Virus record (IMG/VR): IMGVR_UViG_3300023284_001445 | Coordinates: 1-20,246 of that record | Reading direction: 5' to 3' (one strand) | DNA length: 20,246 bases | From: a virus | In this document: in pieces, positions 584 through 15,100 of the stretch | Layout: each line of letters begins with the position of its first letter | Numbering within the stretch: position 1 is the stretch's first letter | Made by a program: the position numbers and the translations under genes | Notes under the pieces: model-generated | The model's database searches: none | Seen by the model: the letters and a program-made list of their open reading frames with translations, nothing else | What the model was told of the DNA's origin: nothing

Positions 584-799
584 ATGAGTGTTGTCGCTGG
601 ATTGGGGTTGCTCTTGGCTATTGTCATGGGAATGGTGGCGATGGCCCAGATCGATTCCTTGCAAGACCTCAGTAAGACAATCACAACGGGCAGCGTGAAT
701 AGTTTGATGGGGACCACTACATTCCTCATGCTCCTGGTCGTTGTTGTGATTGCTATCGGCGGGGTAGTCGGCGCGCTCTTGTGGATTGTCAAGAAGTAA
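584..799 (+). CDS. Small two-helix membrane protein, 71 aa
   Basis: Residues about 1-21 form one hydrophobic helix (MSVVAGLGLLLAIVMGMVAM). A polar loop with Ser, Thr and Asp follows, then a second helix at about 44-68 (FLMLLVVVVIAIGGVVGALL), ending in a short basic tail VKK. The size and helix-loop-helix layout match the neighbour at 863-1108, and both recall small coat, pilin-like or holin-like membrane proteins. No family motif is recognisable. The ATG at 584 has no clear ribosome binding site. The frame is open upstream only to a stop at 503 and offers no better start. The 63-base gap to the next gene suggests co-transcription. Function unknown. Confidence 0.55.
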   Translation: MSVVAGLGLLLAIVMGMVAMAQIDSLQDLSKTITTGSVNSLMGTTTFLMLLVVVVIAIGGVVGALLWIVKK

Positions 800-862
800 C
801 GAAAGATCATCAAGAGGATCAAGGCAATCCGTAAACAAAGTCCTTCTAGCTAGGAGATTAGC

Positions 863-1108
863 ATGGACAGACGAATACTACTGATCGTGGTTGGTGTAAT
901 CACCATCGTGGTCGGGCTGGTCCTTGAGACCACAATCCTGACCGAAGCGGCCAGTTCCGGGTCGAATGCCAACATCGGGTCATTCTCGGGTGCGCAGGCA
1001 CTCAATGACCTAGTCCCTCTCATCTACAACGCGGTGGTCGTAATGATCGGCGTGGGCATGATGGCAGTGGGCGGCGCTGGCTTGGCCGGGAGAGGACCGG
1101 CAGCTTAG
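863..1108 (+). CDS. Small two-helix membrane protein, 81 aa
   Basis: A good ribosome binding site, AGGAG at 852-856, stands six bases before the ATG. The protein begins with MDRR and a hydrophobic helix (residues about 5-23). A Ser/Asn/Gly-rich loop of about 30 residues follows, then a second helix (about 55-74) ending in a Gly/Ala-rich tail. The topology is that of the preceding 71-residue protein, suggesting a pair acting together in the membrane, perhaps as a pore or a filament/coat subunit. I cannot match it to a family. A strong hairpin at 1125-1159 follows 16 bases after the stop. Confidence 0.65.
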   Translation: MDRRILLIVVGVITIVVGLVLETTILTEAASSGSNANIGSFSGAQALNDLVPLIYNAVVVMIGVGMMAVGGAGLAGRGPAA

Positions 1109-1202: not shown

Positions 1203-1289
1203 GTGGCTACAAAGAAAAGAAAGGTCAGCATGAAGACCAGGAAAAAGATTGCCGCGGGAGTCCGAAAGGCCGCCCGCAGAAGGAAGTAG
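1203..1289 (+). CDS. Lys/Arg-rich 28-aa peptide
   Basis: A GTG at 1203 is preceded by an excellent ribosome binding site, GGAGGT at 1191-1196, six bases away. The frame ends at TAG 1287-1289. The product begins MATKKRKVSMKTRKK and ends AARRRK; 15 of 28 residues are Lys or Arg and none are acidic. Its MA-x-K-K-R start faintly resembles the tagged proteins further right (compare MAKKRVGKR at 1529), but it lacks the VGKR core. Such a peptide could bind DNA or RNA, condense the genome or act on membranes; the sequence does not say which. It lies alone between the hairpin at 1125-1159 and the terminator at 1308-1342. The binding site makes translation likely despite the small size. Confidence 0.6.
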   Translation: MATKKRKVSMKTRKKIAAGVRKAARRRK

Positions 1290-1528: not shown

Positions 1529-1723
1529 ATGGCCAAGAAACGTGTAGGCAAAAGGAACTTCCGAACCAAGCGCGTCACCCCTACTGCTGGGGATTTTTCG
1601 CGTCCCTTGGTGTTCACTCAGGCCGGGATGGATAGCAAGAACAGCTTCCAAGAAAAGGCTATTACGCAAGGGATGGAGAAGCTGTTGGGGCCGGTGCCGA
1701 AGGGCAAGAGCTTGGGGACGTAG
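1529..1723 (+). CDS. Tagged small protein 1 (MAKKRVGKR start), 64 aa
   Basis: This is the first member of a series of ten small proteins sharing a basic N-terminal tag with core [VI]-G-[KR]-R. The ATG at 1529 has GGAG at 1519-1522, six bases upstream. An in-frame TTG at 1517 would add four residues but would displace the tag from the N-terminus, so 1529 is chosen. After the tag (MAKKRVGKRNFRTKRV) the rest is mixed polar with no recognisable fold: Phe/Gln-containing in the middle and Pro/Gly/Lys near the end. It lies two bases before the next tagged gene. Function unknown; the tag is discussed in the findings. Confidence 0.7.
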   Translation: MAKKRVGKRNFRTKRVTPTAGDFSRPLVFTQAGMDSKNSFQEKAITQGMEKLLGPVPKGKSLGT

Positions 1724-1725
1724 CC

Positions 1726-2061
1726 ATGGCTGGTAGAAGCATAGGCCGCCGCAGAATCCAACACCGCTCCCCCCTCCAAGCCCCCTCCCTCTTTGACGAG
1801 GAGATCGACACAGGAGACGGTGGCCGGGAAGGATTCCTCAACAGTACAGATTCCGCCCTCACCAACGAAAGGCGTGCTCAGAGAGCCGGGAGATTAGTGG
1901 AGACTGCCCGGCAGAGGATTGCTGAGGAAGCCATGACCCGCCAGCTTGGCCACCAGCCTCTTCAGGGTGACCTTACCGGCCCCGAGAGGAAGCTGAACGA
2001 AATCAACGCCAGGGCCGTGGCCGAACACAGAAGGGTCACCGGCGGAGGTGGGGTGGTTTAA
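1726..2061 (+). CDS. Tagged small protein 2 (MAGRSIGRRRI start), 111 aa
   Basis: The tag appears as MAGRSIGRRRI, with Ile for Val and Arg for Lys in the GKR core. An acidic stretch follows (LFDEEIDTGDGG). The C-terminal two thirds are strongly helical and rich in Arg, Glu, Ala and Gln (ERRAQRAGRLVETARQRI, then GPERKLNEINARAVAEHRR), compatible with a coiled coil. This is the longest tagged member. The start is two bases after the previous stop, with GGGGA upstream. Its TAA shares the last A with the next ATG (TAATG), implying translational coupling. No family recognised. Confidence 0.7.
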   Translation: MAGRSIGRRRIQHRSPLQAPSLFDEEIDTGDGGREGFLNSTDSALTNERRAQRAGRLVETARQRIAEEAMTRQLGHQPLQGDLTGPERKLNEINARAVAEHRRVTGGGGVV

Positions 2062-2321
2062 TGGACACATCTGGCGAGTTTGGTCGAGCGCGCTGGGTTG
2101 TCCGTTGGTATAACTGGGCGTTCAAGGATGTAAGAAATCAAAGATTTTGGGCCGGAGTTAGAGAGTTGAGGGGCCAGCAAAACCAGGATATGCGCGACGA
2201 TCCTTCTCTAGGTCGAGACTGGCTAAGAGGGCAGTGTAAAATCTTCCTCTCTCTTTTCGGTGTAGCCTCGTTACCCGGAGTCCTACTGCTTCTAGTCTTA
2301 ACTCTACCAGGATGGATCTAA
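2061..2321 (+). CDS. Small protein with C-terminal membrane helix, 86 aa
   Basis: The protein has no tag. Its first 58 or so residues are charged and rich in Trp and Arg (ARWVVRWYNWAFKDVRNQRF). Residues about 60-84 form one membrane helix ending PGWI at the C-terminus, as in a tail-anchored protein with the charged part in the cytoplasm. It is coupled by TAATG overlaps to the tagged genes on both sides, so it is probably made together with them. A membrane partner of the tagged proteins is one possibility; there is no motif to support any specific function. Confidence 0.65.
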   Translation: MDTSGEFGRARWVVRWYNWAFKDVRNQRFWAGVRELRGQQNQDMRDDPSLGRDWLRGQCKIFLSLFGVASLPGVLLLLVLTLPGWI

Positions 2322-2467
2322 TGGCTCATAGCGTTGGCCGCCGCGCCGTCCGGGTCCGTCCCGTCAGCAACGGAAAGAACCGCCTCACCGTCTCGGGGGA
2401 GAAAGTCGGGGATTTCAAGAGCAAGCGAGTAGCGGAGAAGATCGGCCGGATAAGGTCCGGGCAATGA
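2321..2467 (+). CDS. Tagged small protein 3 (MAHSVGRRAV start), 48 aa
   Basis: The ATG at 2321 shares its A with the TAA of the upstream gene, and the stop at 2465-2467 overlaps the next ATG at 2464. The product is 48 residues: the tag MAHSVGRRAVRVRPV, then NGKNRLTVSGEKVGDFKSKRV and a basic helix to the end. With no acidic cluster, the net charge is strongly positive. The segment from NGKNRLTV to KRVAEKI resembles the SPKG-[GE]-L...FAK segment of the tagged proteins at 2958 and 4275, so the three may share a small beta-alpha domain. Its start and stop are fixed by overlaps on both sides, which supports a real gene. Confidence 0.7.
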   Translation: MAHSVGRRAVRVRPVSNGKNRLTVSGEKVGDFKSKRVAEKIGRIRSGQ

Positions 2468-2760
2468 CGGTAGTCGAGGTTGGCAAGGTAAACGGCTACT
2501 ACTGTTCAGTCTGTGAACAGACCACCTGGACAGTCCACGTGGACGTCGGAACCGCTCCTCCATTCATAGCCTGCCGCGCTACATTCTTCTGTCCCGGCCA
2601 GGCTGTGAGCATGAAGTACCGAAATGTCCCGTCAAGCGTGGCTCCTGAATGGGAATGGTACAAGCCTGGCTCTAAGGGCCTTAAGGGCTTCTCACCCGAG
2701 GTACGAGAACACTGTAAAAAAGGCGGTTTACTACTCCGGCCATTTCAGGAGATGGCATGA
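2464..2760 (+). CDS. Small four-Cys (zinc-ribbon-like) protein, 98 aa
   Basis: Cys14 and Cys17 (YCSVC) and Cys37 and Cys43 (ACRATFFC) have the layout of a zinc ribbon, so a structural zinc is likely. The rest is polar, with a Trp-rich stretch (EWEWYKPGSKG) and a C-terminal helix. The start ATGA overlaps the stop of the tagged 48-residue gene, and its own TGA overlaps the next ATG in the same way. It has no N-terminal tag. Phages often encode such small zinc proteins. No function can be assigned. Confidence 0.65.
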   Translation: MTVVEVGKVNGYYCSVCEQTTWTVHVDVGTAPPFIACRATFFCPGQAVSMKYRNVPSSVAPEWEWYKPGSKGLKGFSPEVREHCKKGGLLLRPFQEMA

Positions 2761-2948
2761 TCACCCGCGCCCGCGCTGTACAAATACTCCAGGAGCACGG
2801 GACCGGTCCCAACATTCCCACAGCATGGTTCCCCGAGGAAAACAATTATGACCCCACCAGCACTTTTGATGAGATAGTCGGGGTGAAAGAGGAATACCAG
2901 TTCATGGAAGTATTGGGGTTTTTGGGGTACTGCTGCCCACACTGTTAA
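2757..2948 (+). CDS. Small protein ending in a Cys cluster, 63 aa
   Basis: The frame starts in an ATGA overlap with the previous stop and ends two-thirds of the way to the next tagged gene. An N-terminal helix (ITRARAVQILQEHG) is followed by an acidic, aromatic middle and a second helix, and the protein closes with GYCCPHC. The final Cys-Cys-Pro-His-Cys could bind a metal or form a disulfide or dimer contact. No family recognised. Both boundaries are set by neighbours, which supports the call. Confidence 0.6.
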   Translation: MITRARAVQILQEHGTGPNIPTAWFPEENNYDPTSTFDEIVGVKEEYQFMEVLGFLGYCCPHC

Positions 2949-2957
2949 GGAGAACAA

Positions 2958-3212
2958 ATGGCTAAGGCCGTTGGCACGAGGCGTAAGCTCGGCTCCCGAC
3001 GCGTAGAGCCTCAATCTATAGATGACATGGTAGCCTCGCTGCGTAAGAAAGGCTTTACTGTCAGACGTGCCGCTGGCTTTTCTGGTCTACATTTTGAGGT
3101 TATTAGCCCAAAAGGCGGGCTCCATGGAAACGCTTTTGCGATCCGCCGCCCCGAGCAATTTGCTAAGATCCTTGCTGGCGAGGATAGATTCTTCAACCCT
3201 CGGAGGGTATAA
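2958..3212 (+). CDS. Tagged small protein 4 (MAKAVGTRRK start), 84 aa
   Basis: GGAG at 2949-2952 stands five bases before the ATG. The tag is MAKAVGTRRKLGSRRV, with Thr where most copies have Lys or Arg. A helix follows (IDDMVASLRKKGFTV), then an alternating beta pattern through HFEVISPKGG, a helix with EQFAKILAG, and a basic end NPRRV. The segment SPKG-x-L ... RPEQFAKILAG aligns by eye with SPKGEL ... NAVRFAKDLLV of the tagged protein at 4275, so these two probably share a domain as well as the tag. That domain could be a small alpha/beta nucleic-acid binder; this is a guess. Confidence 0.72.
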   Translation: MAKAVGTRRKLGSRRVEPQSIDDMVASLRKKGFTVRRAAGFSGLHFEVISPKGGLHGNAFAIRRPEQFAKILAGEDRFFNPRRV

Positions 3213-3425
3213 ATGGCTCGCACTGTAGGTAAAAGAAAGGTCCACAACAAGCGCCTTCTCATGGACGTGGATCGTCCCATCCCCGGTATGGACCAGGAGG
3301 CCGCCTGGCTCATCAACGCCGAAGATGATGCCAGTAGGAACATAGATAAGACCTCTGACGCGGCCATTAAGCGTCTCAGCCGAAACGAACTATTTCCTCT
3401 TCAAGAAAGGAACGGTCTTGGCTAA
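3213..3425 (+). CDS. Tagged small protein 5 (MARTVGKRKV start), 70 aa
   Basis: GGAGGG at 3202-3207 precedes the ATG, which follows the previous stop directly. The tag MARTVGKRKV matches the consensus almost exactly. The remainder is mostly helical and polar, with Met/Asp/Pro (MDVDRPIPGMDQEAAW) and Asp/Arg-rich stretches. Its C-terminal codons overlap the TTG start of the next tagged gene by eight bases. No known domain. Confidence 0.72.
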   Translation: MARTVGKRKVHNKRLLMDVDRPIPGMDQEAAWLINAEDDASRNIDKTSDAAIKRLSRNELFPLQERNGLG

Positions 3426-3573
3426 GAAACGCACAGTTGGCAAGCGCCGGGTTAACGGCAAGAAGGCGTTGAAACAGCAGCACAAGGCTCAAGATGAGGC
3501 CGCCACAAGACAGGGTGCCAACGCTGAACATATCCTAATCAGCATGGGGCAGGCGACACAGAGGGCGTTTTAG
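3418..3573 (+). CDS. Tagged small protein 6 (TTG start, MAKKRTVGKRRV), 51 aa
   Basis: This short gene starts at TTG 3418, overlapping the previous gene by eight bases. AAAGGAA lies about six bases upstream. The start is fixed by homology: the next codons give AKKRTVGKRRV, the array's tag with two extra Lys residues after MA. The rest is a Gln/Ala/Lys-rich helix (KQQHKAQDEAATRQGA) ending RAF. It abuts the next gene (TAG then ATG). It is easily missed because of its length and rare start codon. Confidence 0.7.
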   Translation: MAKKRTVGKRRVNGKKALKQQHKAQDEAATRQGANAEHILISMGQATQRAF

Positions 3574-3738
3574 ATGGCACTCCCAGAAATCTTGTTACTG
3601 CCCGTTCTTGCTGTTTCCATCGGCATCATTGGACTCTACCTGATAGATAAACGCTTCCGTGGGATCGAAATATCGCTCACGGTCACGCCGTACACTCGGG
3701 ACAAGAAGACTCACGTAGGTTCGGCACATAATGGCTAA
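3574..3738 (+). CDS. Single-pass membrane protein, 54 aa
   Basis: The ATG immediately follows the stop of the tagged gene before it. Residues 3-24 form one hydrophobic helix (LPEILLLPVLAVSIGIIGLY). A basic, Thr-rich tail of about 30 residues follows (DKRFRGIEISLTV, then PYTRDKKTHVGS). Positive charge after the helix suggests the tail is cytoplasmic. The stop TAA is inside codons 2-3 of the next tagged gene (ATGGCTAA), an eight-base overlap that should couple their translation. No family recognised. Confidence 0.6.
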   Translation: MALPEILLLPVLAVSIGIIGLYLIDKRFRGIEISLTVTPYTRDKKTHVGSAHNG

Positions 3739-4039
3739 GATCAGTATTGGCAAGAGACGAGTAGGCACCCCTCGCAAACCCCAAACCATCACCCCTGAAG
3801 CTCTCCAGGACTTCAAGGACACGGGCCGGAAGGTTACTGAAAAGTCTGGCGGGATCGTCCTGCTTGATGGATTCAGGAAGTTCCAAGTAGTCGGGGAAAA
3901 GAAGCCGGAGAAGGAAGATACCCCAGAGAAAGAGAGGGCCGATCCTTCCTTCGAGGGGGACTTTGTAGGTCAGGGCTCGGTAACATCCGACTTTGGCATC
4001 ACCGCCAACAACAAGAATGAGCTCACGGAGTTTGTCTAA
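3731..4039 (+). CDS. Tagged small protein 7 (MAKISIGKRRV start), 102 aa
   Basis: The tag is MAKISIGKRRVGTPRKP. Residues about 22-55 look like a compact alpha-beta unit (ALQDFKDTGRKVTEKSGG, then IVLLDGFRKFQVV). The second half is a highly charged, probably disordered stretch rich in Lys, Glu and Asp (EKKPEKEDTPEKERADPSF), ending in a polar tail NNKNELTEFV. The shift from basic tag to acidic tail also occurs in the tagged proteins at 1726 and 4528. The start overlaps the previous stop by eight bases. Confidence 0.7.
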   Translation: MAKISIGKRRVGTPRKPQTITPEALQDFKDTGRKVTEKSGGIVLLDGFRKFQVVGEKKPEKEDTPEKERADPSFEGDFVGQGSVTSDFGITANNKNELTEFV

Positions 4040-4044
4040 AAACT

Positions 4045-4275
4045 ATGCCGCTTGACCCTCTGGTCGAAGAGATCAAAGATGTACCGGCTTTGATTGATTG
4101 GCTAAAAGAAGCAGACTCCGAGTTATTAGCCGCCATCTACGCCCAGCTAGGCTGGAGATTTTATGACCGCGTGGTAGACTGTGGCTCTCATGGCGATATA
4201 GAAGGCATGATGGTTTGGGCGGACCGTATCCATGATATTCGTCGTATCGTAGAAGAACTTGAGAAGGTGGAGTAA
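4045..4275 (+). CDS. Small acidic helical protein, 76 aa
   Basis: This untagged protein is acidic and almost entirely helical: DPLVEEIKDVPALIDWLKEA, then ELLAAIYAQLGWRFYDRVVD, a short Gly/His turn, then MVWADRIHDIRRIVEELEKV. It could be a three-helix bundle. Its negative charge contrasts with its basic tagged neighbours, and its last A is the A of the next tagged ATG (TAATG). An acidic partner for a basic tag is an attractive but untested idea. The ribosome binding site is weak, so reinitiation after the previous gene five bases upstream is likely. Confidence 0.62.
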   Translation: MPLDPLVEEIKDVPALIDWLKEADSELLAAIYAQLGWRFYDRVVDCGSHGDIEGMMVWADRIHDIRRIVEELEKVE

Positions 4276-4526
4276 TGGCCAGAGCCGTAGGAAAACGTTC
4301 GGTCCGCCCACGCTCGCTGGACCCTCGAATTATATTCTCTGAGCGAAAACCGGGGTCTGTTAGCCCTAAAGGCGAATTGATTATCACCGTTTTCTCCCGG
4401 CCAAATGCCGTTCGGTTCGCCAAGGATTTACTGGTAGACCGTAGAGGCGGCATCGTCACTATCGAGAAAAAGAGGCGAATCTTTGGTCGTGGCTCACAGT
4501 GGACTATAAGACACAGGAGCAATTAG
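4275..4526 (+). CDS. Tagged small protein 8 (MARAVGKRSV start), 83 aa
   Basis: The tag is MARAVGKRSVRPRS. The body aligns by eye with the tagged protein at 2958: a strand leading to SPKGEL, then a strand and a helix with RFAKDLLVDR, then basic strands (IVTIEKKRRIFGRGS) and a basic C-terminus RHRSN. It is strongly cationic throughout, which would suit nucleic acid binding. Translation is probably coupled to the acidic helical gene before it by TAATG. One base separates its stop from the next tagged ATG. Confidence 0.72.
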   Translation: MARAVGKRSVRPRSLDPRIIFSERKPGSVSPKGELIITVFSRPNAVRFAKDLLVDRRGGIVTIEKKRRIFGRGSQWTIRHRSN

Positions 4527-4527
4527 C

Positions 4528-4764
4528 ATGGCTAGAACAGTAGGTAAAAGACGAGTCAAAGCGAAAACGCCCGTCGAGCGCAAGAGGGAAGTGAACCTTT
4601 TCGACTTCTCGGATGACTTCGGGACCTTCGAGGATCCCTTTGATGATGGAGACTTCCTCGGGGCAGGCCATCCAAACCCGGCCAGAACCACCAGGGATCT
4701 AACTGGCGTGGCCGTGGGCGTCACGATGGTCGGGATTATCCCGCCGCTGATCTCCACACTCTAG
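4528..4764 (+). CDS. Tagged small protein 9 (MARTVGKRRV start), 78 aa
   Basis: The tag MARTVGKRRVKAKT is the clearest consensus copy. After a basic linker comes an acidic, Phe/Asp-rich stretch (LFDFSDDFGTFEDPFDDG, about residues 24-42). The protein then ends with a hydrophobic, Gly/Val-rich segment (LTGVAVGVTMVGIIPPLIS, about 58-77) that could lie in or on a membrane. The order basic, acidic, hydrophobic in 78 residues is striking. A ribosome binding site GGAG lies eight to ten bases upstream, within the end of the previous gene. A small GC hairpin without a T-tract follows the stop. Confidence 0.72.
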   Translation: MARTVGKRRVKAKTPVERKREVNLFDFSDDFGTFEDPFDDGDFLGAGHPNPARTTRDLTGVAVGVTMVGIIPPLISTL

Positions 4765-4846
4765 TAGGCGGCTGTGACCGCCATCACATCTTCCTCGGTC
4801 CTAATCTGTGACACTACGCCTAGATTGCAGACAAAGGAGCGAGAGT

Positions 4847-5107
4847 ATGTTCTTCCTTATTTGGGGTTTCGGCCATCAAATCATCACGCCTTACGGCCCA
4901 GTAGCCCCAGACGTATGCCCCGACTGTTTCCACCAGATATTCTACCATTTGACTAGAGTACAGACTTGGCTTACCTTGTTCTTCATCCCGGTCATCCCAT
5001 ATTCAACCAAGTATTATCTTTTCTGCCCTGCTTGTAATTTAGGTGCTGAAGTGAAGAGCACGGATATCGGCAACGTGAAAGAGTTGGCAGGCAATGTCTC
5101 AGGCTGA
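4847..5107 (+). CDS. Zinc-ribbon membrane-associated protein, 86 aa
   Basis: AAGGAG at 4834-4839, seven bases before the ATG at 4847, marks this start in preference to an in-frame GTG at 4808. Cys24/Cys27 (CPDC) and Cys60/Cys63 (CPAC) form a zinc ribbon. Between them lies a hydrophobic stretch, WLTLFFIPVIPYSTKYYLFC. This layout, with the MFFxIWGFG start, matches the bacterial zinc_ribbon_15-type family (from memory), which is common in cellular genomes, so this may be a host-derived gene. Its role is unknown. The last 14 bases overlap the next small frame. Confidence 0.72.
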   Translation: MFFLIWGFGHQIITPYGPVAPDVCPDCFHQIFYHLTRVQTWLTLFFIPVIPYSTKYYLFCPACNLGAEVKSTDIGNVKELAGNVSG

Positions 5108-5243
5108 ACGGGATTGGGCGAGAGGAAAGGCTACAAAGCAGGGCGGTAGGTGGCACCCAAAACCCTGTACCTGTATGATGTGCGAATGCATCAGGTTGGC
5201 GAACGCTCAAATAGTCCTTAATGCTACGGAGAGGCGAACGTGA
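5094..5243 (+). CDS. Small Cys-rich protein, 49 aa
   Basis: The ATG lies inside the end of the zinc-ribbon gene (14-base overlap), with GGCAGG just upstream. The product is basic at first (AERDWARGKATKQGGRWHPK), then has the tight cluster CTCMMCEC at residues 25-32. That cluster gives four Cys within eight residues and could bind zinc or an iron-sulfur cluster. A helix follows to the end. It is too short to match to a family. The overlap and plausible binding site are the main support, so the call is moderate. Confidence 0.45.
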   Translation: MSQAERDWARGKATKQGGRWHPKPCTCMMCECIRLANAQIVLNATERRT

Positions 5244-5260
5244 TCATCGTCACATCTTTT

Positions 5261-5308
5261 CCTCCCGTCGCTTGAGATAATAAGCTCAAGTTAAAGACGG
5301 AGGGAGGA
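5261..5308 (+). promoter_or_regulatory. Hairpin that buries the ribosome binding site of the next gene
   Basis: CTTGAG (5271-5276) pairs with CTCAAG (5285-5290) around an eight-base AT-rich loop. Below it, after an internal loop of one base on the left and five on the right, CCGTC (5265-5269) pairs with GACGG (5296-5300). After a three-base bulge, TCCTC (5260-5264) pairs with GAGGA (5304-5308). The last arm contains most of the Shine-Dalgarno GGAGG (5303-5307) of the ATG at 5312, so the RNA can hide its own binding site. It might act as a translational switch or a temperature- or ligand-sensitive element. Confidence 0.45.
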
Positions 5309-5311
5309 GCA

Positions 5312-5488
5312 ATGGAACAGACGACAGCAACCCCAACCGAGCAAGGACGAGCCCCTTATCTTTGCAGCACCAGAATATCCCTGTACACTTTGTGCTCCAG
5401 GCAAGCCGACTTCACAATGGATGTGAACGGAGTGAAACGCCCCCTTTGTCATCGACATTATCAGGAAAGGATGTGGATAGATGGCTAG
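5312..5488 (+). CDS. Small Cys/His protein, 58 aa
   Basis: The strong GGGAGG at 5302-5307 lies just before the ATG and inside the hairpin at 5261-5308. Cys18, Cys28, Cys46 and His49 (LCHRHY) could form one zinc site. The N-terminal 14 residues are Thr/Pro-rich. The stop TAG lies within codons 2-3 of the next tagged gene (ATGGCTAG), an eight-base overlap. Any control exerted by the hairpin should therefore pass to the tagged protein at 5481. No family recognised. Confidence 0.55.
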   Translation: MEQTTATPTEQGRAPYLCSTRISLYTLCSRQADFTMDVNGVKRPLCHRHYQERMWIDG

Positions 5489-5720
5489 AACCGTAGGGAG
5501 GCGCAAGGTCAAGCCCGTAACCTCAGATATTTCCTCAGAGACTTGGATTGCTACTCTCCACCGACAGGGTCGTGTCTTTGATATTGGACAACTCACTCCA
5601 CAGCATAGGCGTGACTTGGATAAAGAGGTAAAAGCAGGCCGAGCCACTAAATCACGAGAGCTTTGGCCATTTGTGAATAGCGGAGGGGTGCACAAGACCG
5701 CCTGGTTCACACGACGGTGA
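5481..5720 (+). CDS. Tagged small protein 10 (MARTVGRRKV start), 79 aa
   Basis: This is the last member of the tagged array; the tag is MARTVGRRKVKPVTS. The body is helical and polar, with WIATLHRQGRVFDIGQL, then PQHRRDLDKEVKAGRATKSR, and an aromatic basic end (HKTAWFTRR). The segment from RQGRVFDIGQLTP to KAGRATK reads like a small helix-turn-helix-type three-helix domain, but I cannot place it. The ATG is ten bases after AAAGGA and overlaps the previous stop. Its TGA shares its A with an ATG at 5720, where the glycosyltransferase should begin. Confidence 0.7.
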   Translation: MARTVGRRKVKPVTSDISSETWIATLHRQGRVFDIGQLTPQHRRDLDKEVKAGRATKSRELWPFVNSGGVHKTAWFTRR

Positions 5721-5802: not shown

Positions 5803-7200
5803 GTGGACGGGGGAGCCTACCTTCTAAGTGTAAATACGGTCCTGGGTGACGAGCCCACCAACGCTGGATTTCCTCGGCCACCTCTCGCTCCGGGATGGCT
5901 GTTGGTACCATTTCTCTCCGCCTTTGGGGATGACGTGGGGTATAAAGTGTGGAGTACCTTGGCCTCCATGCTCCCCGTCATCCCCGTATATTTATTTGCC
6001 AAGAGAATCAACCACCGGTACGCCGCTCCCTTCGCTGTAGCCTTCCTGCTGGTGGACCTCCTACACGCTGAGATGATCGTGACCGGAGCTCTCCCCCTCA
6101 TTGGATTTTCTCTTCTAGGTCTGGTCTGGTGGGCCATGTGTTCACTGTCTGAACGCTGGTCTTGGAGAGCCGCAGCCACTCTAACCCTCTCCCTCGGCCT
6201 CATCCCTTGGGTAAACCAAACAACCGCCGGTCTCGCTATAGTGACCATCCCAGTTCTATTTCTCGCCCTCCTGTGGTACAATCGCTCTGCCCCAGGCATC
6301 ATCACAAAGCGCATACTACCGCCTCTAGTCTTCGGCGGTAGTATTGCGTTAGGCGCCCTCCCCTGGTACATGGACGTTCTCCCGGTCACCGGCATTCTCA
6401 ACTACCCCGGCCCTTTCATCTACCTCACCCATGCTTTCGACTCTGCTTGGTGGCAGTTCCTCTTGGCCTGGCCCCTCGGTTTATGGATGATCCGTAGAGG
6501 AAAGGAGCCATGGCTTCGGTCTCTTGGGGTGTTGACCGTCCTTCTCGGGACTCTGCTGGTTTTTCTCTCCACTGATGAGACGGTCATCAATATCTTCTAC
6601 CGGTCCCGGTATCTATTGGCCATCCCGTTCTATGTGGGGATTTCTTGGGTGATTTGGGACCGGTTAGCCCCTCAGATGCCTCCCTGGCTAAAAACAGCGT
6701 CTCCGTGGCTCTCCGGGGCAGCAATGGTGATTCTAGTCGTGGGATACGTGAGTCAATTCAACCGGCAAACGGGTTATTCGGACATGGCAACACCCGCAAC
6801 GGTAGAAGCCTTGGAGTTGATAGCTCGGGAAGACCCTGGCGCCGGGGTGGTGAACAACTCTTTTACTTTGGCCCTGTGGATCAGTGCTCTGAATAAGGTG
6901 CCGAGCCCTCACACCTGGACATGGCAGCCTCCGTCGAGGTTTATAGAGACGGATAAGGACGTAAGATGTGTTCTGGGCTGGGTGGTCGGCTGTGATCACT
7001 CTGGGGCTGCTGGTAGACTGGGAGCCGGGTACGTGTTGATTGACACGAGATTCCCAAACTATAATTCTCGGGCGCCGGGCATCTACCTGGCACCCGAGAA
7101 CCAATGGGAAGTTACAGCAGAGACACCCTGGCTGACTAAGATATTTGAAAAGGGAGCGACTCTAGCGTACAAAATATCCAGCGGGGGTAGGCAGCCTTGA
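5803..7200 (+). CDS. GT-C-type membrane glycosyltransferase (start uncertain)
   Basis: At least 465 residues, and about 490 with the upstream helix, with about ten membrane helices. The early motif GVDGGAY-LLSVNTVLG and the loop FPRPPLAPGWLLVPFLSAFG match GT-C enzymes of the PMT/ArnT/GT39-like group. These use a lipid-phosphate sugar donor on the outer face of the membrane; the Asp in VDGGAY corresponds to the usual first-loop catalytic acid. A soluble C-terminal part of about 130 residues starts after helix ending YVSQFNRQ and includes GAGYVLIDTRF. The GTG at 5803 is only the first available start and would remove helix one, so the true start is probably at 5720 with a base missing. Its TGA overlaps the next TTG. 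Such a gene is unusual in a phage and suggests modification of host surface glycan. Confidence 0.8.
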   Translation: MDGGAYLLSVNTVLGDEPTNAGFPRPPLAPGWLLVPFLSAFGDDVGYKVWSTLASMLPVIPVYLFAKRINHRYAAPFAVAFLLVDLLHAEMIVTGALPLIGFSLLGLVWWAMCSLSERWSWRAAATLTLSLGLIPWVNQTTAGLAIVTIPVLFLALLWYNRSAPGIITKRILPPLVFGGSIALGALPWYMDVLPVTGILNYPGPFIYLTHAFDSAWWQFLLAWPLGLWMIRRGKEPWLRSLGVLTVLLGTLLVFLSTDETVINIFYRSRYLLAIPFYVGISWVIWDRLAPQMPPWLKTASPWLSGAAMVILVVGYVSQFNRQTGYSDMATPATVEALELIAREDPGAGVVNNSFTLALWISALNKVPSPHTWTWQPPSRFIETDKDVRCVLGWVVGCDHSGAAGRLGAGYVLIDTRFPNYNSRAPGIYLAPENQWEVTAETPWLTKIFEKGATLAYKISSGGRQP

Positions 7201-7394
7201 GTCCTCAAACTATTTCAGGCTGGACTCGTGACTGGGGAGTCCTTGTTGTTCACCCTTTTATCTGCTTAAATTGCGGAAAGCGTGTTCAAGGTATGAAGGC
7301 CAGTTGGACTTTATTGTACGGGCACCGGGTTGAGGGCGGGATAGTGTGTGACTCATGCAACTGGAGAAGGCTTTATGGTTATTACCCGAGTTGA
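7197..7394 (+). CDS. Small zinc-ribbon protein, 65 aa
   Basis: The start is a TTG overlapping the previous stop (TTGA), with GGGGG about eight bases upstream. Cys23/Cys26 (CLNC) and Cys51/Cys54 (CDSC) are spaced as a zinc ribbon, with an aromatic C-terminus (RRLYGYYPS). The N-terminus contains Trp residues (GWTRDWG). Its end overlaps the methyltransferase start at 7375 by 20 bases, so the two may be translated together. The rare start codon lowers certainty. No function assigned. Confidence 0.55.
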   Translation: MSPQTISGWTRDWGVLVVHPFICLNCGKRVQGMKASWTLLYGHRVEGGIVCDSCNWRRLYGYYPS

Positions 7395-8043
7395 TAGGCC
7401 GATGGTATTCGACCAGCCAGCCCACATTGCCAGGGAGAGCCACGTCTGGAATGCGCTTTCCCCCTACTTGCCTAATCTTCAAAACAAGTCGGTATTAGAT
7501 TTAGGCTGTGGCTGGGGGGGCTTTGGGAAAAGGGCCGCCGAACAGGGGGCCAAGGTTCTGTTCGTAGATGGCAGGGAGGATAACCTGAGAGTGGCTAAGG
7601 AAGCTGGCCCAAATCACTCTTACATCCACCAGGACATTACAGATCCTTTCTGGTCACCGCCCTTAGTAGATGTCACCCTCTGTTTAGGTGTCTTGTACCA
7701 CGTCGATAATCCTAAAGATGTACTTAGAAAGGTGGCCTCATCTCCTGTATTGGCGATAGAGAGCATCTGTCTGGACCACGATGGGGTTGCTATGGTGATG
7801 CTTCAAGAAGACACGGAGCAAGTGGACTATAGCCTGACAGGCGGGGCTTGTCGTCCTTCTCCGGGCTGGATCGTTCAAGCACTGTACGATATCGGATATA
7901 ACAGTATTACTGCGATTGGGGTCACGAATATTGCAGCCACGCCAGAATGGCCCGGAGCTTTGTGGGACTGGGATTATGAGCATACTTGTGGTTGGCGTCG
8001 AAATGGGCATCAATTGAGGAAGTTGTACATAGCAACAAAGTGA
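7375..8043 (+). CDS. Class I SAM-dependent methyltransferase, 222 aa
   Basis: GGAGAAGG at 7363-7370 sits just before the ATG at 7375, so this start is preferred to an in-frame start at 7348 without such a site. Motif I is LDLGCGWGGF (residues 41-50) and the acidic residue ending the next strand is Asp65 (VLFVDGRE). The post-I and motif IV region QDITDPF ... LCLGVLYHVDNP is typical of Methyltransf_11/23 and CmoB-like proteins. The later segment TGGACRPSPGWI also resembles the CmoB/DUF1698 group. It lies directly downstream of the glycosyltransferase, so a sugar or glycolipid substrate is plausible; a tRNA substrate cannot be excluded. It is the last gene before the convergence with the minus block. 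Confidence 0.82.
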   Translation: MVITRVDRPMVFDQPAHIARESHVWNALSPYLPNLQNKSVLDLGCGWGGFGKRAAEQGAKVLFVDGREDNLRVAKEAGPNHSYIHQDITDPFWSPPLVDVTLCLGVLYHVDNPKDVLRKVASSPVLAIESICLDHDGVAMVMLQEDTEQVDYSLTGGACRPSPGWIVQALYDIGYNSITAIGVTNIAATPEWPGALWDWDYEHTCGWRRNGHQLRKLYIATK

Positions 8044-8069
8044 CAGGCAAGACCCGGCCATTTAAAAAT

Positions 8070-8447
8070 TCAATACCCGCACTTTCCTCGAATATCAGCT
8101 TCGCCCCGGTAGGCCAGTATAACCAAATAGGCATCAAAAATAGTGATGTGGCCCTCATTATCATGGTAAGACCAGTCTCTTGTACTTCTATATCCACGGG
8201 GCACTTCTATATCCCCAGCAGCAAGCTGGTACCATGTGGGAGCCACCCGGCCGGAGGCGAATTGAAGCAGGAGAAGCGCATCGGACATGTCTACCCTTCC
8301 GTCATAGTTCACATCCCCACACCTGGGTGGAATAGGGGCCTTCTGGTCTTTCGCCAAGACTGGGGCCTGAAATATGAATAAGGAAAACAACGCTATCACG
8401 AGGGGGAGTAGCAGAATCCTCCCTCTCCCTTCTCTTCTCCTCCTCAA
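8070..8447 (-). CDS. Secreted dockerin-like protein, 125 aa
   Basis: A very basic n-region (MRRRREGRGR) is followed by a hydrophobic core to about residue 28 and a likely cut after Ala32 (APVLA/KD): a clear signal peptide. Residues 43-66 form a type I dockerin calcium loop, CGDVNYDGRVDMSDALLLL, with Asp45, Asn47, Asp49 and Asp56 in ligand positions. Residues about 78-112 form a second, longer-looped repeat (AAGDI ... NEGHITIFDAYLVIL). Dockerins bind cohesins or fold as small calcium modules; no cohesin gene is in the window. Cys43 and Cys123 could form a disulfide that ties the domain ends. The start is TTG at 8447, seven bases after the upstream stop, with no good binding site, so it is uncertain. 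Confidence 0.75.
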   Translation of the reverse strand: MRRRREGRGRILLLPLVIALFSLFIFQAPVLAKDQKAPIPPRCGDVNYDGRVDMSDALLLLQFASGRVAPTWYQLAAGDIEVPRGYRSTRDWSYHDNEGHITIFDAYLVILAYRGEADIRGKCGY

Positions 8448-8454
8448 GGCGGGC

Positions 8455-8706
8455 TCAACTATGGCCTAGAGGATCGCTAGTGAATCGACGGATAAAAGAC
8501 TCTTCCGCCGCTGTTGTGTCTCTTTCTGCTGGCTCTGTTCGCTCTTGACTCAACTGCCTAAACCAGCTCGGCTCTGGTGAAATGAGGAATTTGTATCTGT
8601 ATTTTGCATACCGGTCGAAATGGTCAGGGCAAATAGCATAGCCCCCAACAATAGTCATTGCATCCTCGGCGCAGGCTCCAACAGAGCAAATGATATTCGC
8701 CATCAT
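8455..8706 (-). CDS. Small Cys/His protein, 83 aa
   Basis: The protein starts with two Met codons (8706 and 8703); the first overlaps the ligase-like gene's stop as ATGA. Cys7, Cys12, Cys26 and His29 (CPDHF) could form a zinc site. A Tyr/Lys-rich helix follows (DRYAKYRYKF), then a Glu/Arg-rich, probably disordered tail. Its position in a tight run with the ligase-like and dockerin genes suggests co-transcription. No family recognised. Confidence 0.6.
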   Translation of the reverse strand: MMANIICSVGACAEDAMTIVGGYAICPDHFDRYAKYRYKFLISPEPSWFRQLSQERTEPAERDTTAAEESFIRRFTSDPLGHS

Positions 8707-9821
8707 GTCCTCTCTTTCCCTTTACTCAATACTCCCACCAACATCCACCAAAACCCCCCAAGATGTCCCATCCAACTATAGTAATCCAGCATGGAGAGGG
8801 AGACCAGGGCTAGCAACATCCACCAAGCCGTCCCGCCTCTACCTCTCAGCAGCGTCCAGGCTGTCACGCCCACCCATAGCCCGGCCGCTAAAACCCCACT
8901 CTCTATAGCTATTCTTAACGGCACGTTGTGGAGGCCTGGATGCTCAGCTACTCCACTAGGCAGAAAAGATGGGATGTGCGGGACGGCCAATCTAGTGGCT
9001 ATCTCTCCGTTCACGCCACGAACACTAGCGAGTAAGCTGTCTAAACCAGAGATGCCGTAGCTAAAAGGTGAAGCGATCACGGCGATGATAATTGTCCCGA
9101 GAGCTACTAGAACGGCTGCCAATACCCTCCAAGATCGCCTCTGAGACACAAGGATAGCCACTAGGGCTACAACCCCGACAATCAACCCCCATCTGCTGCC
9201 GGTGAACAACAGCGCCACCAAGACCGGCGCAGACAACCAAGAATATGACTTGCTGGTACTGATATGAATTAGCCCTAAGACTAAGAATCCCGCAGCCAAG
9301 TTCCCGTTGTTAGCTAGGCCTGTAGGGGCATCGGTCCTAATGAGGAACTGATCAAACCAGTACCAATGCGCCCAGCCTTGGTAGATGACGAGACCGGCGT
9401 GGAAGAGAACCGCAGGGAGCAGCCAATTGAACACGCTGCGGACATGGATATCAGCAAAATACAACAATAGGGCCGGGGCCATCCAAAGTAACACCCCAGC
9501 GGTTAGCTCCCAGTTGCCTGAGCCCCAAAATATGCTCCCAGGGATAGCCAAGGCGTGGAATATGAGAAGGTAAATAAGGGCAGCATATACAGGCCTGGGA
9601 CCAATGGACTTGGGAGAGATCAGAAAACCAGAGAATAGAGCTATCCAGCCGACACTCAACCATGGACTGGTGAAGGACTGCATCATCAGCATGGAGACGA
9701 GGAAGAGGGCGAAGCACGGAGCGGCCAAGGCTTGTCGGTCCAGTGCGATCAGACGCAGAAAGGCCACGGTCAGGAGAAGCTTGGGAAGGTAGGGCCAGTG
9801 GGAGGGGGTTATGGAGAGCAT
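8703..9821 (-). CDS. O-antigen ligase / polymerase-type membrane protein, 372 aa
   Basis: About ten hydrophobic helices span the protein. A long outer loop near the C-terminal third contains LASVRGVNGEIATRLAVPHI and the stretch HPGLHNVPLRIAIESGVLAA. That stretch is the kind of conserved segment seen in the O-antigen ligase/Wzy superfamily (PF04932-type: N-x-x-L...G...G). A middle motif, LANNGNLAAGFLVLGL then LLFTGSRWGLI, is also typical. Such enzymes join or polymerise lipid-linked glycans on the outer face of the membrane. The length is normal for the family. With the GT-C protein at 5803 it suggests the element alters the host surface polysaccharide. The ATG at 9821 lacks a strong binding site. 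Confidence 0.75.
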   Translation of the reverse strand: MLSITPSHWPYLPKLLLTVAFLRLIALDRQALAAPCFALFLVSMLMMQSFTSPWLSVGWIALFSGFLISPKSIGPRPVYAALIYLLIFHALAIPGSIFWGSGNWELTAGVLLWMAPALLLYFADIHVRSVFNWLLPAVLFHAGLVIYQGWAHWYWFDQFLIRTDAPTGLANNGNLAAGFLVLGLIHISTSKSYSWLSAPVLVALLFTGSRWGLIVGVVALVAILVSQRRSWRVLAAVLVALGTIIIAVIASPFSYGISGLDSLLASVRGVNGEIATRLAVPHIPSFLPSGVAEHPGLHNVPLRIAIESGVLAAGLWVGVTAWTLLRGRGGTAWWMLLALVSLSMLDYYSWMGHLGGFWWMLVGVLSKGKERT

Positions 9822-9875
9822 GGCTATGGGAGGCCGCGAACGTACTGCCGTAAAAATTCATTCCGTGCCGCGAAG

Positions 9876-10004
9876 CTAGTCATCCAGGCTAACTGCAAGC
9901 GCACCGGTAACCTTCTCAATCCACCCGTTGCGAATCTCGAACTTTTCGCCAGGGTTATAGAGGAAGTGCCAGACCCTCTTACCCTCTCCTGCTCCATAAT
10001 TCAT
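9876..10004 (-). CDS. 42-aa protein between collagen-like and ligase-like genes
   Basis: A short frame starts at ATG 10004, four bases after the stop of the collagen-like gene, with GAGGTAAGG just upstream, and ends at TAG 9878-9876. The product, starting MNYGAGEGKRVWHFLYNPGE and continuing KFEIRNGWIEKV, looks like a compact beta-rich unit. It fills what would otherwise be a 187-base gap in a tightly packed operon. The remaining 54 bases to the next start at 9821 hold nothing I recognise. Function unknown. Confidence 0.55.
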   Translation of the reverse strand: MNYGAGEGKRVWHFLYNPGEKFEIRNGWIEKVTGALAVSLDD

Positions 10005-10008
10005 TGCC

Positions 10009-10854
10009 TTACCTCGTATCCAGGGTCACGTAGGTGATCTTCGGATCCAACGCTCCATCCCCTGCCACCATCACCCGCACTCGCACCGCCCCGATATCAG
10101 GCAGGAACCTTGGTGTACTGACCCACTGGGTAGATTGATTAGCGAAAGCCGATACACTCTCACCTATATGAGGCGTCAGGAACACCCACCGGCTACCCAG
10201 GCTATTCCAGTACTCGACTCTCAACTTCACCACGTCTTGACTGTCAATATTATGCGCCCACTGAGCCCTCACCGCTTGGGCTACACTGAGGTCCAGAACT
10301 CTCCTGCTAAGTCTCCGGGGAACCTCTGTGCCTGCACTCCCGGCGTCCGTGACCTCAATCCCCTCTGCCGCGAAGAGGAGAGTATAAGGGACAATAATCC
10401 CTGCGATGCCCGGCGCCGCGTTGATGTAGGTAATAGGGCCTGGTGGTCCGGTTCCTCCCGCAGGGCCCTGTGAACCCCCCTCTCCCTTCTCTCCTCTCTC
10501 TCCGGCGCCAGTCTCACCAATGGGCCCAACCTCACCCTGTGGTCCCGCCTCGCCTATTGGGCCGGCCGCGCCGGTCTCTCCTCTCGGCCCCACCCCACCG
10601 TCCCCTCCCACGTCCCCTTTTGGCCCTGGAGGCCCAACAACATCTACTGCCTCACCCTGCGACCCCTTCTCACCTACAGGGCCTTCTACCCCCACCGGTC
10701 CAATCGGTCCTGGAGGGCCTGTACAATATCCGCCCAATAGGAGCAGGATCACCCCCACTAAGGCTAGGAAAATACCGGCCTGGAGGGCGCGTGATAGGTT
10801 GTCTGCTCTACGTTCAATAGGCGACATTTGTGGTGGTTGTGCTGTCTCAGCCAT
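10009..10854 (-). CDS. Membrane-anchored collagen-like protein, 281 aa
   Basis: A polar N-terminus of about 24 residues leads into a membrane helix (residues about 25-43, ending GGYC). A collagen-like Gly-x-y region then runs from residue 46 to 141, rich in GPxG and GExG triplets. The repeat phase breaks twice, at residues 67-74 and 116-118. The C-terminal 140 residues form a non-repetitive domain, probably beta-sandwich, with WAHNIDSQDVVKLRVEYWNS and GAVRVRVMVAGDGA. Phage collagen-like repeats usually occur in tail fibres; the membrane helix here points instead to a cell-surface display protein, or less likely a virion-membrane protein. Its ATGGCTGA start overlaps the upstream stop by eight bases. 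Confidence 0.8.
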   Translation of the reverse strand: MAETAQPPQMSPIERRADNLSRALQAGIFLALVGVILLLLGGYCTGPPGPIGPVGVEGPVGEKGSQGEAVDVVGPPGPKGDVGGDGGVGPRGETGAAGPIGEAGPQGEVGPIGETGAGERGEKGEGGSQGPAGGTGPPGPITYINAAPGIAGIIVPYTLLFAAEGIEVTDAGSAGTEVPRRLSRRVLDLSVAQAVRAQWAHNIDSQDVVKLRVEYWNSLGSRWVFLTPHIGESVSAFANQSTQWVSTPRFLPDIGAVRVRVMVAGDGALDPKITYVTLDTR

Positions 10855-12155: not shown

Positions 12156-15100
12156 TTATATTTTGTCCATTTCCAACCAGTTCGGCCCTGCCTTTACCTC
12201 CACAGTGATTGGAACCGAGATACGGACTACATTCTCCATAACTCCGACAACCCACTTAGCCATCCCGTCGACCACCATCTTCGGGCACTCCCATACCAAC
12301 TCGTCATGCACCTGTAGGAGCCACCACAAGAAGGCTGGGGAGCTCCTGTGTAGCTTCCCCATAGCCAGCTTAATAACGGCCTGTGCTGAACTTTGCACCG
12401 GCATATTACACGCCTGTCTCTCTCCTGCCGCCCTTATCCGCCTAATAGGACTCTGAACCTCTGGAGTGAACCGGACCCGCCCCACTAGATCCTGAACATA
12501 ACCATTTAACCTGGCAAAGGACTTCACCCCCTCTTGATAGGTTTTAAGCTCCGGCCTCAGTTGATAGTAATTTTTAATAAAATCCCGGCACCGATCCAAA
12601 TCCCAGCCGTCCGCCCCTTCCCTGGCCATCTGAGTCTCCAATCCGTACTCGCTCTCTAGGTAGATAACTCCGAAGCCGATATTCTTGGTGGCCTTATACT
12701 CAACCGAGTTACTATCCACGTCATCCAGGGGGATGCCGAATATCTCCGACATAGTCTCTTTGTGGATATGCCGCCCCTCTCGGAACAGCCGAATCATCGA
12801 CTCGCATTTAGAAAGGTGCGCTACAATTCTCATCTCGATTTGACTGTAATCGGCCGAAAGTAGTACATTCCCCGGCTCACAGATATACCCCTTCCTGATC
12901 AGCCTCCCATCCTCACTTCTAGCCGGTATCTGCATGGAGTTGAAATCCGCCATGGACCATCTACCCGTAGCGGTCCTAGTGACCTTGATCTCTCCGTGGA
13001 TACGGTTATTTTCGTCCACCGCAGCAGGCAGGGTTTCGCAGAAGCTATCTCTCAGGTGGGTGAGGTGACGGTATAGCTCCACTTCAGGAACCACGGGGTG
13101 TTTGATCTTGGCCAACTCCCCTTTAGCCACGGAAGGAAGGCCAGTCTCGGTATACCTACTCGGTTTGAAGCCAAGCCGTTCAAAAAATAGCACTCTAAGT
13201 TCGTTGTCACTATTCGGGTTGAATCTGAATTTCCCACTCCCCCGGCACCGACATGCTTCAGGGTTGGTGTGCGCCGGTGTACTGGCCGTCCCCCAACACT
13301 CAGGACAGGCGAGATTAGCCGTGTCGAATATAATTTCCGCCTGCCTCTCCATTCGCTCCAAGAAGCTCCGGGATAACATGCGTAGATAGTCCGGGTCCAC
13401 CTTAAAACCCCTCTGCATCATCTCTAGAGCGACGGGGAGGGTGGCCTTGTCCATTTCGTAGGTAAACTGTAATCCGGCCTCTTGGATCATGGGCCAGAGG
13501 ACAGACCGTACCCTGCCGGTAGCATCGGCATCCCGGCTGGCGTAATAAACCGCCTTCTCCCTAGGGATATCATCCATAGTCCCGTCCGGCATCATCCCCA
13601 TCACCGCCTCAACCTCTTCCCTCTCTCTCGGGTCTAAGGAATACCAGCGGTTATGAGCGTCTACCGGGCCGCTCTCCAGTACCTTTCCTCCCACCACATC
13701 CGCGACGATTCCTTTCATCTTCCGGGTAATGTGGTGAGGGGTGGTACGCTTGACCTCTAACTTCCCTCTGGTCTTACTCCAAGTCATATCCTCCAGAATT
13801 GGAGGGGAGGGCCAGGCTACTTGGTCCGGGGACCAGTCGTTGCCTTCCAGCCTGTACTTATAGACTCCCTTCTCCACTCGCTCTTTCTTGACCTTGTGAG
13901 CCCCGTAGGCGGTTTTTTTCAGGAGGGTGAGGGTTTTACCCAAATCTTCCTGGTTGACCGGTAGGATAGCCCCTGTGTCCATGCAGGGAGGCTCTTTGTC
14001 CTTGTAGAACCATCCCCCTGAACCGATACACGCCCACGTGGCAAGAAATTTCCTTTTCTCCTCTGTAGTTTCAAATTCCACAGGCATTCCAGGTTTGAGA
14101 GAGATGGCGGTGTTCAGGTAATTCAAGGCTTTCTCTTTTCGGTACGGTGAGACGGTCTCGGTGTAGCTCTCCATCTCCATCCCACAGAAGCGCCAAGCAA
14201 GCTCTTTCAAACCTTGGGGGAGACCGAGAAGGTAGGCCATGAGCATGGTATCGTCGGTATTTTTCGGGAGGGAGAGGAATTGAGCGTCGTAGAGGTAGTT
14301 GTGGACGGTGACCCTAGACTGGCTAACTTTTTCTGCTTCCTGCTCCCACTTATCGGGAAACATGAAAAGGCCTGTCCCTGGATGGCAAGATGTTTGTACG
14401 CTCCAGAGTTTCCCGTCCACGGTCTCTGTGTCTAATGCCCAATCAAAAGGCTCTATATTCTCGCCTTCAGGGAGTTGGCGATAGGACGGCTCGGAGTACT
14501 GGTCTACCCTCTGAAAATCCTCCACACTCTTCCCCGCGACCAACCCACCTAGGACTTTGAAATCAGACTGAATCTCCCGCATTAAGGAGGTGTTGTAGAA
14601 TCCGGCGGCAGGGTGAAACACTGGGAGCAGAACCACCCTAGGTTCTGACTTGACTCCTTGGAGGCCGTCTAGCTCGGTCCCTCCCCCGGACACAGACTCT
14701 ACATATTCTGACTCTGTTTGAGCCATTTCTTCTCCCTTTTCTGTAGGCTGTGTTACTTCCATCGTAGGCGTGGCCTTTAGGACAGTGAGTTTTTCGTGCC
14801 TCTCGGTGAGTCTTGGCATCAACGGCGTCGTACATGTTGTCGGAATGGCTTCCGAGGTAGAGGTGTGTTGGTCTAACGCAAGGTGGGTTGTTACATCGGT
14901 GGAGGATCCACTGCCCTGCTGGGATGGAGCCATAGGTAATCTCCCAGGCAACCCTATGGGCCTTTCGTAATTTTCCTGTCTTTCCCCCGTACTGGAAGGC
15001 CCCATATCCGAATGAGAATCTTCCGGCCTGCCACTCCCAACAATCCCCTGTTGAGTCAACCTTTGACCAGAAGCTATTTTCCATGTTGGTCCGTCTTTGA

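What the first reader, a model, noticed from the sequence alone, without database searches (positions are those of the whole stretch)
1529..5720. Ten unrelated small proteins share one basic N-terminal tag
Ten proteins in this array (starts 1529, 1726, 2321, 2958, 3213, 3418, 3731, 4275, 4528, 5481) begin with M-A-[RK]-x-[VI]-G-[KR]-R-x-[VR] and then diverge in length (48-111 aa), charge and predicted structure. The codons for the same residues differ widely between copies (for example Arg3 as AGA or CGC, Thr4 as ACT, ACA or ACC), so the peptide rather than the DNA is conserved. This looks like a sorting or docking signal shared by a set of effectors. Possible destinations are the virion interior, a DNA or RNA surface, or one common partner. 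Known phage internal proteins use shared N-terminal targeting peptides, but I do not recognise this motif. I think it is the best candidate for an undescribed system in the window.
Basis: partly seen in the sequence, partly recalled or inferred. Interest (0 to 1): 0.88.

Follow-up and report, generated by a model that had tools for sequence, protein, structure and literature searches.

The report
Phage array of shared-tag small proteins
Ten small, otherwise unrelated proteins encoded side by side in a virus of bacteria begin with the same roughly ten-residue basic 'address label', a layout best known from the internal proteins that phage T4 packs into its particle and injects; what the label does here is untested.

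Summary
Ten ORFs at 1529-5720 begin MA(x2-4)[VI]G[KRT]R, with Ala2, Gly and the core Arg invariant; the finding's stricter formula fits only four. Conservation stops abruptly after about ten residues. The bodies show no homology that survives correction and no family or PDB match. Pattern-fetched loci aside, the same start occurs once in about 47,700 ORF starts of 2.1 Mb of other loci. An N-terminal similarity test finds 31 pairs here, all tag-tag; in 40 kb of phage T4 it finds only IPI/IPII/IPIII, whose capsid-targeting sequence is the closest known analogue. The tag is conserved mainly as peptide, although four copies keep traces of a common DNA ancestor. IMG/VR relatives of the replication block (about 50% identity) exist, but none of the DNA held carries the tag: the array is a singleton in what I could search. 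Best reading: an N-terminal address tag on many cargos, most likely T4-IP-like loading into the virion. The destination is inferred; a nucleic-acid tether or docking to a host or phage machine remains possible.

The parts
1529..1723 (+). tagged protein 1, 64 aa, MAKKRVGKRNF-
1726..2061 (+). tagged protein 2, 111 aa, MAGRSIGRRRI-
2321..2467 (+). tagged protein 3, 48 aa, MAHSVGRRAV-
   Evidence: the only one whose frame is not best of six by codon usage
2958..3212 (+). tagged protein 4, 84 aa, MAKAVGTRRK-; possible distant paralogue of protein 8 (p=0.02, uncorrected)
3213..3425 (+). tagged protein 5, 70 aa, MARTVGKRKV-
3418..3573 (+). tagged protein 6, 51 aa, TTG start, MAKKRTVGKRRV-
3731..4039 (+). 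tagged protein 7, 102 aa, MAKISIGKRRV-, slightly acidic body
4275..4526 (+). tagged protein 8, 83 aa, MARAVGKRSV-; single-sequence model: unconfident first 33 residues, then beta-alpha-beta-beta (mean pLDDT 53.6)
4528..4764 (+). tagged protein 9, 78 aa, MARTVGKRRV-, acidic middle, hydrophobic C-terminus (19-residue Kyte-Doolittle mean 1.84 from residue 60)
5481..5720 (+). tagged protein 10, 79 aa, MARTVGRRKV-; tag modelled without structure at low confidence, then a small alpha/beta body (mean pLDDT 62.7)
2061..5488 (+). eight untagged small ORFs interleaved with the tagged ones: 2061-2321, 2464-2760, 2757-2948, 3574-3738, 4045-4275, 4847-5107 (zinc ribbon), 5094-5243, 5312-5488
   Evidence: 4847-5107 lies within listed ORF 4808-5107, which matches PF17032
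1308..1335 (+). terminator-like hairpin (12 pairs) between the upstream small genes and the array
   Evidence: 12 such sites found in the region against 8.0 expected, so weak evidence alone
1203..1289 (+). 28-aa very basic ORF, GTG start, MATKKRKVSMKTRKKIAAGVRKAARRRK; tag-like KRKV but no VG; membership uncertain
   Evidence: (D5)

Best explanation
The first ten or so residues form a portable N-terminal address tag (after removal of Met, expected because Ala follows: A-x-[TSA]-[VI]-G-[KR]-R-[RK]-V) that brings a set of unrelated small phage proteins to one common acceptor. Shown: the tag, its sharp boundary, bodies without detectable homology, the compact operon, mainly peptide-level conservation. 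Inferred: that it is an address with one acceptor. Most likely destination, also inferred: the prohead core or virion interior, so that the cargos enter the cell with the genome as host-takeover or anti-defence proteins, as T4 IPI-III do by their ten-residue capsid-targeting sequence. The positive charge could help by binding an acidic scaffold or the packaged DNA.
For: Ten N-termini with invariant A2, G and R and a fall to background at offset +6. Bodies without significant homology or database match. N-terminal pairs scoring at least 22: 31 in the window, all tag-tag; 0-5 in eleven related virus contigs; in 40 kb of T4 only the three IP-IP pairs. T4 IPs show the same drop-off. The first ten IPIII residues suffice for packaging (PMC9026906), and IPIII is injected and counters a host block (PMC9391042). 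All 13 gene junctions from 1529 to 4764 lie between -8 and +9 nt. The array is on the strand converging with the polA block, the orientation of the late (terminase, capsid, tail) operon in the related contig G001.
Against: No head gene lies on this 20-kb fragment, so no prohead core or protease can be shown. No consistent prohead-protease-type site follows the tag. The motif is basic and unlike MKTYQEFIAEA. Expression class is unknown. No relative carries the tag. Mostly fragments were compared, and the T4 likeness is one of layout.
Confidence: 0.4

Rival explanations
1. The tag is a nucleic-acid-binding arm: a short basic arm that tethers each small protein to phage DNA, host DNA, or ribosomal or messenger RNA, with the bodies acting locally.
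For: Tag net charge +2 to +6 within 10-12 residues, with slight basic bias to offset +9. The tag is low-confidence and without structure in two single-sequence models.
Against: General nucleic-acid binding does not need invariant Ala2, [VI]-G and an abrupt end. No known RNA- or DNA-binding family matches above cut-off, and no PDB chain matches the tag profile.
Confidence: 0.22
2. The tag is a docking peptide for one host or phage machine (RNA polymerase, ribosome, membrane or replication partner): the array is a set of interchangeable takeover or counter-defence proteins acting inside the cell and not packaged.
For: The same sequence evidence as for the address tag. Arrays of small accessory genes are common in phages (established knowledge), and tagged and untagged small genes are interleaved here.
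Against: No candidate partner identified. No similarity to defence-system proteins, which does not test counter-defence function.
Confidence: 0.2
3. All ten are full-length paralogues from old tandem duplications whose bodies diverged beyond recognition while the N-terminus stayed conserved.
For: Some pairs show weak body similarity: 2321/3731 p=0.004, 4275/5481 p=0.014, 3731/4528 p=0.015, 2958/4275 p=0.02, of 45 pairs. Several tags share DNA.
Against: No pair survives correction for 45 tests. Lengths run 48-111 aa, body charge -4 to +12, one has a hydrophobic C-terminus. Similarity is at background right after the tag instead of decaying.
Confidence: 0.12
4. A DNA-level cassette: a duplicated start region (ribosome-binding site plus first codons) copied to drive translation, with the peptide incidental.
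For: Four copies share 17 nt at 82-94%; slight excess of identical codons.
Against: The upstream 18 nt are no more alike among tagged (0.281) than untagged genes (0.280). Codons for the same residue are close to random across the ten, and untagged genes of the same operon lack the start.
Confidence: 0.03

Closest known systems
[quoted passage not shown]
   Same: Several small proteins of one phage share about ten N-terminal residues and little or nothing after them; same drop-off and same hit pattern in the same test.
   Different: Unrelated, basic motif with VG[KR]R; ten carriers instead of three; one contiguous operon; no consistent protease site after the tag; no T4-like core or protease seen; packaging not shown.
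N-terminal propeptides of giant-phage head proteins (SPN3US, phiKZ)
   Same: N-terminal segments inferred to target proteins into the prohead (PMC5694885).
   Different: Those are mostly long (several over 100 residues) and cleaved; here about ten residues with no identified cleavage motif.
IMG/VR viruses with the same YqaJ-type exonuclease / Sak4 / ERCC4 nuclease / UDG-PolA block (e.g. IMGVR_UViG_3300025296_000161, _3300032132_000017, _3300008217_000048)
   Same: Replication block in the same order; about 36-57% identity for ERCC4 nuclease, exonuclease and PolA in the closest ones, Sak4 30-39%.
   Different: No tag array in any DNA held from them; the core pattern is absent from the whole contigs of 30 of these records (that pattern does not cover forms with extra residues).

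Membership tests
T4-type capsid-targeting sequence / internal head proteins | about ten conserved N-terminal residues on otherwise divergent small proteins | tested here: met
T4-type capsid-targeting sequence / internal head proteins | the CTS sequence itself (MKTYQEFIAEA-like) | tested here: not met
   no resemblance
T4-type capsid-targeting sequence / internal head proteins | prohead-protease site right after the tag (hydrophobic or small residue, any residue, Glu) | tested here: not met
   no such triplet in the first 45 residues of four proteins; scattered positions (18-40) in the other six
T4-type capsid-targeting sequence / internal head proteins | presence in the virion and injection into the host | not testable with these tools
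   needs virion proteomics; this virus is known only from sequence
Single protein family (paralogous array) | homology along the bodies | tested here: inconclusive
   best pair p=0.004 of 45, a few others at 0.01-0.02, not significant after correction; folds not resolved

The most novel reading that the evidence does not exclude
A new modular sorting system: a basic N-terminal tag, unrelated to the T4 CTS, under which an uncultivated virus carries at least ten exchangeable small cargos, with an acceptor not yet described.
Probability: 0.4. Interest if true: 0.85.

Novelty: new variant of a known kind. Interest (0 to 1): 0.62.

Why it matters
If the tag is an address, it marks a set of unannotated small phage proteins as one functional class and offers a portable tag for directing cargo. 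It would extend the T4 internal-protein principle to a different virus lineage and to an array three times larger. It also gives a rule (shared N-terminus, unrelated bodies) by which such sets can be sought in other genomes: in 40 kb of T4 the same simple test returned only the internal proteins.

Tried and rejected
Tag-pattern scans: four of IMG/VR and one of GTDB contigs gave only scattered single hits. Those inspected are a portal-like protein start in two contigs, antisense or internal frames and a few short ORFs; no second copy and no array. tblastn of all ten proteins against INPHARED: no match even at E=10. Pfam, PHROGs, NCBIfam, PADLOC: only weak hits; the most tempting, 5481 to PF25213 at E=0.006, is far below its cut-off. 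PDB by sequence (tag profile, 5481, 4275) and fold search of 5481 in PDB and viral models: nothing significant. Structure prediction is single-sequence and low confidence. A greedy gene caller dropped tagged genes in favour of longer antisense ORFs and was replaced by an all-ORF test. Rfam: no hit. An earlier count said 12 of 13 junctions; the correct count is 13 of 13.

Full report
Observation. The window is a whole IMG/VR record of 20,246 bases. Ten + strand ORFs between 1529 and 5720 start MA(x2-4)[VI]G[KRT]R. Twelve [VI]G[KRT]R matches occur in the six frames and ten are these N-termini. Aligned on V/I, G and the core R are invariant; V/I is 8:2. The mean pairwise BLOSUM score is about zero or below from offset +6, apart from a slight basic bias at +8 and +9. 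Of 45 tag pairs, 39 beat composition-preserving shuffles at p<0.05. The formula in the finding is too strict (four of ten fit exactly), but the thing it describes is real.

Is it more than chance? Over 2.1 Mb of other loci, 47,686 ORF starts gave five matches to MA(x1-4)[VI]G[KRT]R; four lie in loci fetched by the tag pattern itself, leaving one, and 2,154 called genes gave none. A de novo N-terminal clustering test put the window at 8 members against at most 4 in 174 loci and at most 3 in 20 shuffled windows. With a curated gene list the window has 31 similar N-terminal pairs of 231, all tag-tag; eleven related virus contigs have 0-5 pairs; 40 kb of T4, run as a positive control, has exactly three, the IPI/IPII/IPIII pairs. 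The window gene list was curated by hand; the others were called by script, so the comparison is not perfectly even.

Are the genes real? Codon usage from the long genes of the window favours the tagged frame over the other two + frames in all ten ORFs and over all five other frames in nine. From 1529 to 4764 all 13 junctions lie between -8 and +9 nt. A terminator-like hairpin lies at 1308-1335, though such sites are only mildly enriched.

DNA or peptide? Upstream sequences are not shared. Same-residue codons agree 35% of the time against 27% expected (p=0.06; with Ala2 41% against 29%, p=0.009). Copies 3213, 4275, 4528 and 5481 keep 82-94% identity over 17 nt. I read this as tag copying at different times, with selection on the peptide; that reading is inference.

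Bodies. No homology that survives correction; body charge -4 to +12; one hydrophobic C-terminus. A few pairs (2321/3731, 4275/5481, 3731/4528, 2958/4275) are suggestive, so some may be distant paralogues. No library match above cut-off. Two single-sequence models place the tag in a low-confidence, unstructured start followed by a small alpha/beta body; these models are weak, and a fold search with one of them found nothing.

Relatives. The replication block finds kin in IMG/VR: ERCC4 nuclease 36-49%, YqaJ-type exonuclease 45-53% and PolA about 50-57% identity in the closest. G001 (41 kb) shows a late operon (terminase large subunit, major head protein, tail-fibre-like protein) converging on the replication block; the array here lies on the strand that converges in the same way. 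No relative has the tag in the DNA held, nor the core pattern in the whole contigs of 30 records. The environment and host of these viruses were not established.

Mechanism. One short N-terminal peptide, many unrelated small bodies and one operon is the layout of an address tag. The best studied case is the T4 CTS: ten residues suffice (PMC9026906), the cargos are packaged and injected, IPI inhibits GmrSD and IPIII is needed on a particular host (PMC9391042). I therefore put virion loading first (0.4), with a nucleic-acid tether (0.22), docking to a host or phage machine (0.2), paralogy (0.12) and a DNA cassette (0.03) behind. It is not filed as a CTS: the sequence and the protease site were tested and not met, and packaging could not be tested. 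It may work like one.

Novelty. Shared N-terminal tags on unrelated phage proteins are known in kind; this motif, this number of carriers and this lineage were not found in the collections and papers I could search. The paper search covers open-licence PMC only. I call it a new variant of a known kind, with the possibility that the acceptor is new.

Noticed in passing
window 12156-15548 (-): PolA carries an N-terminal uracil-DNA glycosylase domain (PF03167) ahead of the exonuclease and polymerase domains; the same arrangement is in relative L022.
   Followed up: partly
window 14638-15084 (-): An HNH_3 endonuclease ORF (PF13392) lies inside the polA reading region in another frame, in a stretch that most relatives lack (L105 has a different insert nearby); looks like a homing element. 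No Rfam intron match.
   Followed up: partly
window 1203-1289 (+): 28-aa almost purely basic peptide MATKKRKVSMKTRKKIAAGVRKAARRRK upstream of the array, with a 21-nt stretch 81% like part of the 3213 tag region.
   Followed up: no
window 584-1108 (+): Two small hydrophobic, probably membrane-spanning proteins upstream of the array, no family match.
   Followed up: no
window 5803-10854: Accessory region between array and polA: a multi-helix membrane protein without Pfam match and a methyltransferase (+), then a dockerin-like protein, another multi-helix membrane protein and a collagen-repeat protein (-).
   Followed up: no
L044:6927-10740: Four ORFs with lysine-rich N-termini (MAKKKPKKAPTKGKP-like) in another virus contig; could be chance or a different basic tag.
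   Followed up: no
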